From an uncultured Erysipelotrichaceae bacterium (lineage in GTDB: Bacteria; Bacillota_I; Bacilli_A; Erysipelotrichales; Erysipelotrichaceae), in assembly GCA_945877405.1 (NCBI GenBank), contig CAMCSA010000012.1:1-53603 (forward strand): a DNA stretch of 53,603 nucleotides. The letters are read 5' to 3'. The notes beneath the pieces are model-generated. The model saw only the letters and a list, made by a program, of their open reading frames with translations, was not told where the DNA came from and made no database searches. Made by a program: the position numbers and the translations under genes. Each line of letters starts with the position of its first letter. Within the stretch, counting starts at the first letter, position 1. Of the stretch, positions 38,311 to 46,585 are shown piece by piece.

Positions 38311-38829
38311 TCATACTGTAATCCAGTATCTTTCAATCCAGCCGCTTCCGGTTAAGCCAACATCATCCTTGACCATGTTTTCCATCACACCTCCACATGC
38401 CTGTATCGTTTTACGGGACCCGATGTTATCCATATCACAACACAACAGCACTTTTTCTTCCCCTGCCTGTCTGCAGTAATCAATCATCAGCTTCAGCATC
38501 TTAACTGCATGCCCCTGCCTGCGAAAAGAAGGACGGATGCTGTAACCGATACTGCCACCATAATGCAGCAGAAAGTCAGATAAAGGATGCCGGTAGTCAA
38601 TAATGCCAATGACCCGATCAGCATCATCCACATACAGGAAAACATCTGATGGAACATAGGCTTTCCCATATGCTTTTGTAAGCCGTTCTACAAAGTTGAG
38701 CCATTCCTGTACTGACTCCGTATGTTCAAGCCCGGCACAGCCATCGAAGTGATCACCATGTTCCATCATTTCCTTACGGAAGGATAGAATCTGTTTTTCA
38801 TAGGACATATCCGGTCTTACAAGTTTCAT
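38311..38829 (-). CDS. GNAT family N-acetyltransferase
   Basis: 172 residues. The acetyl-CoA motif is SIRPSFRRQGHAVKMLKLMIDYCRQ (R-x-x-G-x-A pattern, residues about 98-120), followed by LCCDMDNIGSRKTIQACGG, where an Asn-x-x-S/A segment packs on CoA. Substrate unknown. Its ATG directly abuts the right end of the IscB element, and joining the element flanks gives GGAGATTAAT-ATG, so it was originally translated as the gene directly after sbcC. In its present state AGG in the element end serves as a weaker ribosome site. Confidence 0.88.
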   Translation of the reverse strand: MKLVRPDMSYEKQILSFRKEMMEHGDHFDGCAGLEHTESVQEWLNFVERLTKAYGKAYVPSDVFLYVDDADRVIGIIDYRHPLSDFLLHYGGSIGYSIRPSFRRQGHAVKMLKLMIDYCRQAGEEKVLLCCDMDNIGSRKTIQACGGVMENMVKDDVGLTGSGWIERYWITV

Positions 38830-38835
38830 GTGAAT

Positions 38836-40143
38836 CTACCTGGCGAGGAAACCTGCTGATTTATCAGCGGGAGGAATCGCCATTCTCCTTTCTGTAAGCA
38901 TTCCTTTGTTGGTGCTTAAGTATTTGATTTTCTTGAATGACACAGATCCTTTATTGACCTTTGTACCATCCAGTGTTCGAATATCCATAAACCCGCTTGT
39001 TCTTCTGCCAAATACAAAGTATTCCTGATCTTCGTATTCTACAGTGTCAAACAGTCTGAAACCTCTTACTGTATGCGGAGCCTGATTCCTTTTACGGATT
39101 CCGCCTTTCAGAATCGTATTCTTATGGATCTGTCTGTTATGATGCCGTATTGCTTTTGAAAGATAGTAATCGCCATCATATTTTGCTGCGTAGTTTTTCG
39201 TAATCACTATGGCATCATTGATATGTGATTTTTCTAAACCATATCGTTCTCTCCAGAATTTTGTAATATAGCCATATGTTTCCTGCACGTGCATACCAAG
39301 TGGCTCGTACTTTTCTCTTAGTCTTGCTACAAGTGTCTTTCTCATAATTCCCATAAATGCAGCATCTTTGAAAGAATGACCTCTTCTCCTGTCTGGAAGT
39401 TTCTTTGTTCCATCATGGATTGCTTTATGGCATTCTTCACACAGCGTTACAAGATTGTCTGGAGCATTACCACCTGTTTTCCGTGACTCAATGTGATGTA
39501 CATGAAATTTTGTGCCATCTTTATGTTTCTTACAGCACTGGCATGTATAGTTGTCTCTTTTGAGAACATACTGTCTTACGTTATATTCGTCATACATCTC
39601 ACCCAGCTGATAATCTGTTCCCACTGGAAGTGGCTTTCCTTCTTCCATTGCTTTGAGTCTTTGTGTGTCAAATTCCGCTGTCTCTACTCTGATCTTTGTG
39701 ATCGGAAGTATCTTTGTGATTTTTGTAATTGCGGATACATGTTCCTGAATTTTCACCTCAACAGAAGGTGCGATCCATCCTTTTGGCTTTGAATGAACTC
39801 TGTTTTCAAATCTTGCCTGTCTGTATCTTGTTTTCCGGTTTCTTCTTGCTCGTCTGTTCTGTCTTCGATTTGAAAGAAGATTTACAACATCGTTTCTTGG
39901 ACTGAGTTCTTCTGCGTACAGAACATTCTTTTCTGTTGTTGCAGCAATACCAACATGTTTGCTTCCTGCATCCATCCCTAGTGTTACTGGTTGTTTATAG
40001 CCAGACGAACCGTAAAACATTTGAATTGTGAAAGGATTTCTTTTTACTACAGTTGCCTTTCCATTCTGTAGAAGCACTCTTGCCTTTTGAGGTTTGCACG
40101 GCATAAGAGGCTCACCGTGCCTGTTGATTACATAAACGTACAT
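38836..40143 (-). CDS. iscB: RNA-guided nuclease IscB
   Basis: 435 residues with all IscB parts in order: PLMP domain (EPLMPCKPQKARVLL, about 11-25), split RuvC-I LGMDAGSKHVGIA (Asp58), Arg-rich bridge helix NRRQNRRARRNRKTRYRQ (about 92-109), RuvC-II KIRVETAEFD (Glu154), HNH nuclease with CQCC, HVHHI (His216/217), TLCEECHKAIH (about 200-243), RuvC-III HINDAI (Asp309), and a C-terminal TAM-interaction region. All catalytic residues are present, so it should be active as an omega-RNA-guided DNA nuclease. AAAGGA lies upstream of ATG. The last codons lie in the right-end palindrome (AIPPADKSAGFLAR). Confidence 0.95.
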   Translation of the reverse strand: MYVYVINRHGEPLMPCKPQKARVLLQNGKATVVKRNPFTIQMFYGSSGYKQPVTLGMDAGSKHVGIAATTEKNVLYAEELSPRNDVVNLLSNRRQNRRARRNRKTRYRQARFENRVHSKPKGWIAPSVEVKIQEHVSAITKITKILPITKIRVETAEFDTQRLKAMEEGKPLPVGTDYQLGEMYDEYNVRQYVLKRDNYTCQCCKKHKDGTKFHVHHIESRKTGGNAPDNLVTLCEECHKAIHDGTKKLPDRRRGHSFKDAAFMGIMRKTLVARLREKYEPLGMHVQETYGYITKFWRERYGLEKSHINDAIVITKNYAAKYDGDYYLSKAIRHHNRQIHKNTILKGGIRKRNQAPHTVRGFRLFDTVEYEDQEYFVFGRRTSGFMDIRTLDGTKVNKGSVSFKKIKYLSTNKGMLTERRMAIPPADKSAGFLAR

Positions 40144-40199
40144 ATGCCGTCCTTTCTATGTCAGATATATAACAGAGAATATAACTCTGTTCAGCTTCT

Positions 40200-40460
40200 G
40201 ACGAGCTGTAATAGAGCAGATTGCCATAATCTGCTCAGACACCATCGCCAATGTTATCTTTGCTTTTTACACATACCACACTGTTCCTACCTCTTAGAAC
40301 TGTTTAATGACATACCACAGAGCTTCAGATTTGGTGTTACGTCCGAAGGTGTGATGACAGAGATAACGTAGTACCCTTATTGCATATGGCACTGCAAGGG
40401 TACTCAGGCTAGTCAACAAAGGCTTTTTCAAGCCTGTGGATTTATCCACGGGTTATTGAC
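40200..40460 (-). ncRNA. IscB omega-RNA (HEARO RNA) scaffold
   Basis: The 317 bp upstream of iscB fold well when read on the minus strand. GTCAA (40456-40460) pairs with TTGAC about 45 bases on, enclosing hairpins GTGGAT-AA-ATCCAC and GGCTT-GAAA-AAGCC. Next, AGTACCCTT pairs with AAGGGTACT (9 bp), GTTATCT pairs with AGATAAC enclosing a multibranched region, and a final hairpin GAGCAGATT-ATGGC-AATCTGCTC lies at 40214-40236. The guide would be the roughly 16 bases 5' of it, in the end of sbcC (positions 40461-40476). Exact 3' end not determined. Confidence 0.85.
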
Positions 40461-40461
40461 A

Positions 40462-43400
40462 TTAATCTCCTGTCATCAATGTAATATGGCTGCCATCACT
40501 GTCTTTTGTGACAATGATCTTCTGAGGAATGCATTCATCCAGCCTCTGTACATGAGAAATGATACCGACAAGGTGGGTATGATCTTCTGAAAGGCTGTCC
40601 AATACCTGAATTGCCTGATCTAGAACATTTCCATCCAGTGATCCGAATCCTTCATCAATGAATAAGGTGTCCAGACTCTGTCCACCAGAATGCATCCGTA
40701 CGACATCCGATAACCCAAGCGCCAAAGAAAGTGAAACAAGAAAGGATTCCCCGCCAGACAATGATGCAGACTGTCTTTTTTCTCCACTCATCCGATCCAG
40801 TACTTCAATATCAAGTCCTGCGCTACCGTTTTTCCGATACGATTCCATCCGATGTACAAGCTGATACTGCCCTGATGAAAGGATTTCCAGCCTTGCATTT
40901 GCCATCTCAATGATCTGCGTAAAGGAAGATGTCATAGCGTAACGTTCAAAGGAAAGCCTGCCACCAGCACCATTACTTCCCATCGCAAGATCATTCATCT
41001 TACTCAGTAATGCCATCATCTTCTGTGCTGTATTCAGTTTTCCACTCAGTTGCTTTGCCTGTTCATATGTTTCGCTGTGATTAGCATACATTCTGTCTGC
41101 CTTTGCATACAGGATGTCAATCCTGCGATACTGTTCTCTTGCTTCAGCAATGTCACTTTCAATGCGTTCAAGATCCTGTTTCTGCATGCCTTCGGTCTGC
41201 TTTTTCAGCTGATGCACACGTTGTTGTGTAATTGCCAAAGCATGATTCCATGCATTCAGACGTTCCGTATTGTCGGCAATCCAGACAGATAGATCATCCA
41301 TGCCTGCAATCTGAGCCAATACTTCTTCTTCCTTTTCAAAGCCACAGGAAACAAGCTGGGTTTTCAGCTGAGCGGTTGCTTCTTCCAGTCTTTGACTGAC
41401 TTCAGGCAGCCGGTTTTTCTGAACCTGTAAAGAACCCTGCAATTGGAAAAGCTGCTTATGCAGTTGGGATTCCTGCGTGTAAAAACAGGTAATCTGCTCT
41501 TCCATGGACGCTTTACTATTTTTCAGCTCAGCAATCATTTCCAGCAGCTGTTTTTCTGTTGGAACAGGGAATGATTTTGTCCGGTTTTCAATCTGAGCAG
41601 CAACAGATTCCATCTGCGCATGGATGGCAGAACTTCTGTTCTGTAATGTCACACTCTCATTTCTGATGCTTTCCAGCTGCAGTTTCAGATCCACTGCAGT
41701 GTTCTGCAGCTGTTTGAGCCGTGTGACTTCTGCCTTTTTTTGTGCGATTGCAGTCTGCAGATTTGTAATTGATGCAAGATCTGTTTCCAACTGATTACGC
41801 AAAGTAGCCTGCGCTTTTGAAGAATCCCATTTCTGTTGTGGAAGCAGCCTTTCAGAAACAGATTCAATGGCAGCTGTACATTCCGCCTGTAAGGAGGCAA
41901 AACTGTTTTGAACAGTACGCAGCTGCTGATCTGCCTTTTCAAAGGCAGCCTGCTTTTTTTCAACTGCACTGCGATCTGGAATCTCATCACTGCTTTGTGC
42001 CAGCTGATCGATCTGATCGACTGTGATATGGCTTCCACATACCGGACAGGTGGAATGACCTGTTTCTTTCAGCTGTTTTTTCATTGTTTTGGCTAAAAGA
42101 CCCGTCTGCCCGTCAATGAATCTGCGATAGATGCATGCATATTCTTCCTGTGCGATTGCAGCTTTGCGAAGTGAATTTTCCAGTTTCTTTTTCAGATCTT
42201 CCATATCATTCTGCAGATCCATAATATGGTTGACAGCCAGAACGTCATCCTCAATCCGCTTCTTTTCTGCAGTGCACTTCTGCAATGCATACGTATCTGC
42301 TTCCAAAGATACCTGCAAACTTGCCAGTCCGGCAATTTGCTGTTCCCCTGTTGCGATCGTTTCTGCCAGTACAGCTTCCTGCTTTGTAACTGCAGCAATT
42401 CTTTCTTCCGTATTGTTTTTCTGCTGTAACAGCTGTTGTTTTTGACTGTTCAGACTTTCTACTTCTTCATATAAAGCTTTGCTCTGTTGTAAGGATGTCA
42501 GTTTTTCAACCGCTTCCTTGACGGCTTTTTCATATGCTTCAATCTGGTTTTTTTGTCCCTGCAGTTTTTCTGATTGAACGCGTAATGCACTCTCTTCCTT
42601 CTGCAAAGCTGCGATGGATGCTTCCAACTGCTGTAAAGCATGCATTGCATCCTGTTTTCTGCTGATGGCAGGTAACAGTCTAGAATCAATGAGTGTAACT
42701 GTATGAATCTTCTGTTTTAATGCTTCATAGTCATCTTTCTGATCCGATAATACCTTCAGCTGTGCTTCATTTTCACTAAGCTGTTGCAGTAAGGCATTAC
42801 CATTTGTTGCCTGTACAAGTTTTTCCTTTAAGTCTAACCCTTTCTGGGTCGTCTGCTCTTTTTGTTTCTGTAGCTGCTGTACGTGTTTTTCATCTGTTTC
42901 CATCAGACTTTTCAGTGAAACAAGCAGATCCGGATGGAATGGATGGTAACAGAAAGGATCAGAATCTTCCGGCATGACAAACTTCTGTTCCATTAACCAT
43001 GTCATCTGATCCTGCAATTGTTTCCCTGTATCCGCCTGCTTCAGATAAGCCTGATGAATCAAAGAAGCGTAATTGCGGATGAGACGATGATCAAAAAGGC
43101 GGGATAGAATCTGTGCCTTTCCTTCACTATCACTTTTCAGAAACTGTTTGAATTCCCCCTGTGCCAGCATGATGATCTGCGTAAACTGTTCCCGATTGAA
43201 GCCAAGAATCTGCGTCACAGCTTCATTGACACGTCTGCTGTTTTCCGTTACCGGTGCTCCATCCTTAAACATTTTTGCATCAAATTTCGGTATGGAATCC
43301 CCGTTTTTTGATTTTGGATAATGAATGGTACGGATCAGTTCATAGTCATGTCCATGATGGGTGAATAAAAAGCGTACCTTTGTATCAGTGGATCGATCCA

Positions 43401-44862: not shown

Positions 44863-44864
44863 AC

Positions 44865-45000
44865 GTGAACCACCCGTCCCTGAAGGGACAGGCTTCTGGG
44901 AACATCAAACTTAGCTGCAGACTTCACAGCCAGAGGTTCAATTATTTACCATGGCTCGTTCCGAGCCTTTTTTTGTATCCATTCAGGCTAAGCCAACGGC
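44865..45000 (-). ncRNA. likely TnpB omega-RNA (reRNA) scaffold region
   Basis: In TnpB elements the guide RNA covers the 3' end of tnpB and the right end. Here 118 bases between the tnpB stop and the element terminus hold hairpins GGCTCG-GAA-CGAGCC and GTCCC-TTCA-GGGAC. The guide would be the flank after TTCAC, namely the sbcD promoter/leader (from 44864 downward). The 5' end of the RNA is not determined. Confidence 0.6.
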
Positions 45001-46152
45001 TAAACCTGTTTCATTGATGTTGATCGCAGCGTTGATGTCTCGATCATGGTGGGACCCGCACTCAGGACAGTCCCATTCTCTGACTTTTAGCCATCCGTAT
45101 GCGTTGTAACCCATACGATTGTTGACACACCCACATACATTGCATGTCTGGCTCGTGTATCCTGGGTTAACACGAATCAGCTTCTTTCCATAAGAGAGAC
45201 ATTTGTATGCAAGCATGTCTGCAAACATGTTCCAGGAAGCATTCGCAATGGCTCTTGACAGATGATGGTTGTTCATCATACCCTTAGCTTTTAGGTCTTC
45301 AATCACAATCACGTCATATGTCTTTACAAGCCATGTACTCAGCTTATCCAGATAGTCTTTTCTCTGATTGGCAACATGTTCGTATATCTTTGCACACATC
45401 CGCCTTGCTTTCTGATAGTTTTTGAAATCTGTCAACCGCAGATCTTCGTTCTTCTTCATTGCCTCCTTGGCTGACAGAAGCCTTCTTGATGCAAGTCTTT
45501 GCCAGTGGCGAAGGCGTTCTTCGGACTCTTTGTCAAAGCGAGGCATGCTGATTTTCGTCCCATCAGAAAGAATTGCAAAGTCTTTGAGCCCGACATCAAT
45601 GCCGATTGTCTTTCCTGTCTTTGGAAGATCGACTTCCTCATATTCGCAAAGAACAGACGCTTCGTATTTTTCAGAGGCTTTCTGCCTAATGGTAATGGAG
45701 CAGATCCGTCCATGAGGGAGTTTTCCGGCTTTGAAATACACAGATCCCAGCTTTGGGATGCGGATATGATGAGCGTCGATAACAACAATGTTATTGTTGA
45801 CACACTTGGAAATGTAGCTCTGCTCATGTCTCTTTGATTTGAACTTTGGAAAACGGCTCTGTCCTTTAAAGAAACGGACATAAGCTTCATGCAGGTTCTC
45901 GTTTGTGCCGGTCAGGGCGGTTGAGTCAGCATCTTTGAGCCATGGATATTCTCTTTTGAGCTGTTTGAGAAGATAGTTCATGGAAAACGCACTCAGGTAT
46001 GGAGCGGAAGGTTCATTGTCGTGTCGTTCTTTCTGCATTGCCAGCATATTGTTCCAAAGCCATCTTGAACAGCCAAACGAAACGGCAATCTGCTCTTTCT
46101 GCGCATCATTGGGATACAGACGAATTCGGAATCCTCTCTTAATCTTTGTCAT
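44983..46152 (-). CDS. tnpB: RNA-guided nuclease TnpB
   Basis: 389 residues. N-terminal helical recognition part begins KRGFRIRLYPNDAQKEQI; RuvC-I is GIDVGLKDFAIL (Asp186), RuvC-II VIVIEDLKAKGM (Glu285), the zinc finger CNVCG...WDCPECG (Cys337, 340, 362, 365) and RuvC-III HDRDINAAINI (Asp372). All catalytic residues are present. The chosen ATG (MTKIKRG) overlaps the tnpA stop by 14 bp. TnpB cuts the emptied donor site or homologous sites to keep the element. Confidence 0.93.
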   Translation of the reverse strand: MTKIKRGFRIRLYPNDAQKEQIAVSFGCSRWLWNNMLAMQKERHDNEPSAPYLSAFSMNYLLKQLKREYPWLKDADSTALTGTNENLHEAYVRFFKGQSRFPKFKSKRHEQSYISKCVNNNIVVIDAHHIRIPKLGSVYFKAGKLPHGRICSITIRQKASEKYEASVLCEYEEVDLPKTGKTIGIDVGLKDFAILSDGTKISMPRFDKESEERLRHWQRLASRRLLSAKEAMKKNEDLRLTDFKNYQKARRMCAKIYEHVANQRKDYLDKLSTWLVKTYDVIVIEDLKAKGMMNNHHLSRAIANASWNMFADMLAYKCLSYGKKLIRVNPGYTSQTCNVCGCVNNRMGYNAYGWLKVREWDCPECGSHHDRDINAAININETGLAVGLA

Positions 46153-46585
46153 GGGAAGCCTCTTTTTTTCTCTGATCGTTGATGTACTTAGCGACCGCCT
46201 GTTGGTTTGAGGCCCCGATACTTTCAACATAGTAAGACGGAGACCATAAGTGCCTATCCTCTTTTTTCCAATAAAAGGATTTGAGTTCTGGGTGCATACG
46301 GAAAAGTCTGAAAGCGGATGTCCCTTTTAAACAAGAAACGATTGTTGTTACCGACAGTTTTGGAGGAGCCGATACAAGCAGATGCACGTGGTCGTCCAAA
46401 CCAATCTCAAGATGCTCAATCGCGAAGCCTTTTTCTTCCGCAATCTGATACATCAAAGACTTCAGATCTTTCTCAATCTGCTCAGTAAGAACTTTGTTTC
46501 TGTACTTTGTCCCCCACACAATATGGTAATTCAAGTTGTACACACATGTTCTACCGTATGTAAGTCGTTCGTCATGTCTTTCCAT
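46139..46585 (-). CDS. tnpA: IS200/IS605 Y1 transposase TnpA
   Basis: 148-residue HUH single-strand transposase. The metal site is LDDHVHLLV (His66, His68) and the catalytic Tyr is in KYINDQ (Tyr134, with Gln138 as the third metal ligand in the YxxxQ motif). Length and motifs are complete, so it should be active. No ribosome site precedes the ATG; the -10 box is placed for a leaderless transcript. It may also serve the IscB element, whose right end also finishes in TTCAC. Confidence 0.94.
   Translation of the reverse strand: MERHDERLTYGRTCVYNLNYHIVWGTKYRNKVLTEQIEKDLKSLMYQIAEEKGFAIEHLEIGLDDHVHLLVSAPPKLSVTTIVSCLKGTSAFRLFRMHPELKSFYWKKEDRHLWSPSYYVESIGASNQQAVAKYINDQRKKEASHDKD

What the first reader, a model, noticed from the sequence alone, without database searches (positions are those of the whole stretch)
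40200..40476. Well-preserved omega-RNA with a guide read from the end of sbcC
The pre-iscB region shows a nested set of stems (5, 6, 5, 9, 7 and 9 bp) matching the multi-branched HEARO layout. Because the guide is taken from the last codons of sbcC, any intact sbcC-GNAT junction copy would be a target. All IscB catalytic residues are present, so this is a candidate active compact nuclease.
Basis: partly seen in the sequence, partly recalled or inferred. Interest (0 to 1): 0.6.

Follow-up and report, generated by a model that had tools for sequence, protein, structure and literature searches.

The report
IscB transposon copy behind sbcC
This is a copy of a small jumping gene whose RNA-guided DNA cutter (IscB, the ancestor type of Cas9) carries the address of the place it landed, here the end of the sbcC gene; it is an ordinary member of a known family, although its copies tend to sit exactly between a gene's ribosome-binding site and its start codon.

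Summary
An omega-RNA (Rfam HEARO, 141 bits, E 1.9e-29) lies at 40460-40233 on the minus strand, directly before an intact 435-aa IscB gene (38836-40143). The genome holds eight HEARO matches. Near-identical copies share both ends with this one, so the element is 38830-40460 (1,631 bp). The 16 nt outside its left end, ATGACAGGAGATTAAT (40461-40476), are the last sbcC codons plus one base: the predicted guide. The right end abuts ATGAA, the start of the downstream GNAT gene and a fit to the published NTGA-type motif of the IscB relative IsrB. Joining the flanks restores sbcC stop, Shine-Dalgarno and GNAT start, so the empty junction would be a proper target. No held genome shows that empty junction, and no other perfect guide match exists in this genome. 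It is a new member of a known kind: an IscB/OMEGA element without its own transposase. One extra: in three genomes, 9 of 14 copies lie between a Shine-Dalgarno and an ATGAA start codon (0.5 expected from all ATGAA sites; about 2 from gene-sparing sites). The guide lies outside the element, so its transcription must start in host DNA; such insertions would supply that. RNA, cleavage and movement are untested.

The parts
38830..40460 (-). whole IscB element (omega-RNA, iscB, right-end hairpin), 1,631 bp
   Evidence: similarity to other copies in the genome starts at 40460 and stops at the ATGAA beginning at 38829
40461..40476 (-). predicted 16-nt guide ATGACAGGAGATTAAT: last sbcC codons M-T-G-D-stop plus one T
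   Evidence: directly outside the element's left end, sequence differs at every copy; 16-17 nt guide length from PMC9640706
40233..40460 (-). omega-RNA scaffold (HEARO, RF02033)
   Evidence: cmscan 141.2 bits, E 1.9e-29; covariation
40214..40236 (-). 9-bp hairpin GAGCAGATT-ATGGC-AATCTGCTC between omega-RNA core and iscB
   Evidence: fold z -2.5
38836..40143 (-). iscB, 435 aa, RNA-guided endonuclease with PLMP, RuvC, bridge helix and HNH
   Evidence: NF040563 339 bits, cut-off 175; RRXRR and HNH; catalytic residues
40433..40452 (-). left-end hairpin CCCGTGGATAAATCCACAGG, inside the omega-RNA
   Evidence: same plan as the right-end hairpin
38852..38871 (-). right-end hairpin CCCGCTGATAAATCAGCAGG, overlapping the end of iscB
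38825..38829 (-). ATGAA: predicted target-adjacent motif and start codon of the GNAT gene
   Evidence: present at the right end of every resolved copy of this family in the genome
40462..43608 (-). sbcC, intact (1,048 aa), source of the guide
38311..38829 (-). GNAT acetyltransferase gene on the other side of the insertion

Best explanation
This is a non-autonomous IS200/IS605-type transposon carrying IscB and its omega-RNA. It inserted just after sbcC, in front of an ATGAA site. A transcript that begins in the sbcCD genes would run through the last sbcC codons, the omega-RNA and iscB. IscB would hold this RNA with the last 16 nt of host sequence as guide and cut DNA in which that sequence is followed by ATGAA, which is the junction as it was before insertion. 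The element's own locus would be spared because GTCAA, not ATGAA, follows the guide match there. Cutting the empty junction would let repair copy the element back, or favour chromosomes that keep it. Shown: sequence, conserved structure, ends, guide position, motif, copy number. Inferred: transcription, cleavage, retention, and movement by a Y1 transposase encoded elsewhere in the genome.
For: HEARO hit with covariation; IscB model match and catalytic residues; eight HEARO matches in the genome and IscB copies at 97-99% identity; shared ends, different flanks; joined flanks restore sbcC stop, AGGAG and the GNAT ATG; guide matched perfectly only at its own locus, which lacks the motif; Y1 transposases elsewhere in the genome; no promoter-like site on the minus strand from 42221 down to iscB, and no terminator-like site on that strand between sbcC's end and iscB.
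Against: No empty junction was seen in 70 genomes of the genus. No RNA or cleavage data. The window copy has one extra base (TTCAC|ATGAA, other copies TTCA|ATGAA). No resident Y1 transposase with matching end hairpins was found.
Confidence: 0.88

Rival explanations
1. The element is intact but silent: the omega-RNA is not made at this locus, so the guide is only a passive record of the insertion site.
For: No element-internal promoter can lie upstream of the guide, and no promoter-like site was found near it; nothing here measures transcription.
Against: The sbcD-sbcC-iscB-GNAT genes run in one direction without a terminator-like site between sbcC and the omega-RNA. Natural expression of omega-RNA regions of other HEARO systems is reported (PMC9755519).
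Confidence: 0.25
2. The IscB has been taken over by the host to regulate or protect sbcC or the GNAT gene, rather than serving the transposon.
For: It sits inside a repair-gene cluster with intact neighbours.
Against: Other copies at 97-99% identity with other guides and intact nuclease residues mark it as a recent mobile copy; its own locus lacks the motif, so it should not bind there.
Confidence: 0.04
3. The stems are chance pairing and there is no functional RNA.
For: Folding the sequence alone is only mildly better than shuffles (z -2.45).
Against: Full-length HEARO hit at E 1.9e-29 and strong covariation.
Confidence: 0.01

Closest known systems
IscB / OMEGA systems (for example OgeuIscB, PDB 7UTN, 7XHT)
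   Same: PLMP-RuvC-bridge helix-HNH order, catalytic residues, 5' guide followed by a HEARO-type omega-RNA upstream of iscB
   Different: Shorter (435 aa against 495-496 aa); motif predicted as ATGAA; activity not measured
IsrB (PMC9581776)
   Same: NTGA target-adjacent motif on the same side of the target, 5' guide
   Different: IsrB lacks the HNH domain, which is present here
TnpB-bearing IS200/IS605 elements
   Same: guide read from the flank, motif shared with the insertion site, proposed role in keeping or spreading the element (PMC11870625)
   Different: TnpB's guide is at the other (3') end of its RNA and the nuclease is of the Cas12 type

Membership tests
IscB (OMEGA nuclease) | IscB protein with PLMP, split RuvC, bridge helix and HNH | tested here: met
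   NF040563 above cut-off, RRXRR and HNH, D58, E154, H216/H217, H307, D310
IscB (OMEGA nuclease) | HEARO-type omega-RNA directly upstream of iscB | tested here: met
   covariation
IscB (OMEGA nuclease) | guide is host flank outside the element end and differs per copy | tested here: met
IscB (OMEGA nuclease) | target-adjacent motif at the other element end | tested here: met
   ATGAA at all resolved right ends of this family in the genome; motif use itself not measured
IscB (OMEGA nuclease) | RNA-guided double-strand DNA cleavage | not testable with these tools
   needs a biochemical assay
IS200/IS605 transposon | subterminal hairpins at both ends | tested here: met
   matching hairpins at 40452-40433 and 38871-38852
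IS200/IS605 transposon | single-strand insertion next to a short motif without target duplication | tested here: inconclusive
   joined flanks give a coherent junction without duplication, but no empty site was observed
IS200/IS605 transposon | own Y1 transposase (tnpA) in the element | tested here: not met
   no room for one inside 38830-40460; Y1 genes exist elsewhere in the genome. Most published HEARO nucleases also lack a nearby tnpA (PMC9755519), so the claim is only 'IS200/IS605-type, non-autonomous'

The most novel reading that the evidence does not exclude
IscB elements of this lineage use the ATGAA motif to settle between a Shine-Dalgarno and a start codon, always codirectional with the host gene. 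The guide is then the gene's ribosome-binding site, and the host promoter transcribes an omega-RNA whose guide lies outside the element.
Probability: 0.45. Interest if true: 0.5.

Novelty: new member of a known kind. Interest (0 to 1): 0.33.

Why it matters
It is a complete, multi-copy, apparently recently mobile IscB family with defined ends, guides and motif, small enough to test. The start-codon bias, if it holds, offers an answer to how an element whose guide lies outside its own DNA gets that guide transcribed.

Tried and rejected
Guide-scaffold pairing (ATGACAG with CTGTCAT in the minimum-energy fold) as a self-inhibiting feature: about a third of random 16-mers pair as well. AlphaFold2 model of the IscB with 8 sequences: mean pLDDT 47, not used. 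Empty-site search by GNAT, SbcC and joined flanks: no intact junction. Phage target: no match of guide plus motif in viral contigs. Matching the element's hairpins to a resident Y1 transposase: none found. Ends of the TnpA/TnpB element in the window by copy comparison: no full second copy. The original HEARO paper is not held in the library, so whether the start-codon bias was described there was not checked.

Full report
What is there. The Rfam HEARO model matches window 40460-40233 on the minus strand over its full length (141.2 bits, cut-off 83, E 1.9e-29). It is followed by a 435-aa ORF (38836-40143) that exceeds the cut-off of the NCBIfam IscB model (339 against 175 bits) and matches Pfam RRXRR and HNH. 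It aligns with solved IscB chains of the OgeuIscB type. RuvC residues D58, E154, H307 and D310 and the HNH pair H216/H217 are present. The organism belongs with Erysipelotrichaceae: the nearest IscB in the genome collection (71% identity) lies on a record named Erysipelotrichaceae bacterium 7770_A6, and a contig of a same-genus genome has the same length and the same left flank as that record.

Structure. Folding the sequence alone is weak evidence (z -2.45). On an alignment of 17 related omega-RNAs, the HEARO pairs give 87% paired cells, 39 pairs with changes on both sides and a covariation score of 0.458. Sliding the partners gives 33-43% paired and a score of about 0.1 or less, and no shuffle reaches the observed values. 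In the window copy 62 of 66 mapped pairs form.

Ends and guide. The genome has eight HEARO matches and several IscB copies, two others at 97-99% identity. Several contigs end inside the element, as expected for an assembly broken by repeats. Similarity to the other copies starts at window 40460 (GTCAA) and ends at the ATGAA that begins at 38829. Upstream of GTCAA every copy has different sequence; in the window it is ...TTG ATG ACA GGA GAT TAA T, the end of sbcC. With the published 16-17 nt guide length (PMC9640706), the guide is 40476-40461. At the other end ATGAA follows TTCA in the other copies and TTCAC in the window.

Target. Joining the flanks gives ACAGGAGATTAAT|ATGAAACTTG: the sbcC stop codon overlapping the spacer, AGGAG, 6 nt further, then the ATG of the GNAT gene. 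This coherent junction is indirect evidence for the pre-insertion state. It would be a target with its motif, whereas the occupied locus has GTCAA in place of the motif. No other perfect match to the guide exists in the genome, none with the motif in viral contigs, and no empty junction was found in the genus (70 genomes), where SbcC is at best 37% identical in the 60 genomes searched by protein.

Mechanism. For TnpB, the nuclease is reported to cut the excision junction and element-free copies and so to promote retention and spread (PMC11870625); by analogy the likely role here is to keep the transposon. The guide is upstream of the element's first base, so its transcription has to start in host DNA, here probably the sbcCD unit, which runs in the same direction. 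The element has no tnpA; Y1 transposases are present in the genome, one of them in the window. These steps are inferred.

An added observation. In three genomes with several element copies and right ends resolved (this genome 3, G029 7, G183 4 insertions), 9 of 14 sites have a Shine-Dalgarno at the right distance, an open frame of at least 50 codons from the ATG and an upstream in-frame stop. The expectation from all ATGAA sites in sampled DNA of the same genomes is 0.48, and none of a million simulations reached 9. Restricting the background to ATGAA sites that do not interrupt a gene (crude gene calls; fractions) raises the expectation to about 2.2 by my arithmetic. Two examples, genes named from memory of these proteins: the C9 copy sits before a frame reading MKKKNRVRKSEEFQKIIHKG, which looks like rnpA, and the G225 copy (L185) sits before ATGAAAAGACCTATCTATGTAATTGGACATAAAAATCCAGACACTGATTC, which looks like ppaC. 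A family whose right end abuts ATGGA (G115) does not obviously follow the pattern. Limits: the criterion was made after seeing the first cases, selection against gene disruption is only roughly controlled, and copies within one genome are not fully independent. It needs an independent test, and I could not check whether it has been described in papers outside the held library.

Verdict. It is an ordinary, well-preserved member of IscB/OMEGA; the start-codon bias is the only part that might interest a specialist.

Noticed in passing
window 44983-46546 (-): A TnpA (Y1, 46172-46546) and TnpB (44983-46230) pair sits just upstream of sbcD, so sbcCD is flanked by both a TnpB and an IscB element. By eye its right end may be ...GGGTGGTTCAC near 44864, with the following bases before sbcD as TnpB guide.
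   Followed up: partly
L052, L056, L159-L170, L185, L187, L199-L201: IscB element copies are often inserted between a Shine-Dalgarno and an ATGAA start codon (9 of 14 in three genomes; 0.48 expected).
   Followed up: partly
L161, L162, L164 (genome G029): Three of seven near-identical element copies carry an insert of about 1.7-2 kb or more between omega-RNA and iscB; L199 shows the iscB end more than 5.8 kb from the left end. The inserts were not identified.
   Followed up: no
L168 (genome G183): A copy that lacks about 950 bp of the iscB region but keeps both ends, so an omega-RNA without intact iscB.
   Followed up: no
L171-L177 (genome G115) and L178-L180 (genome G030): Related element families end at ATGGA and ATGAC instead of ATGAA, hinting at different target motifs within one order.
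   Followed up: no
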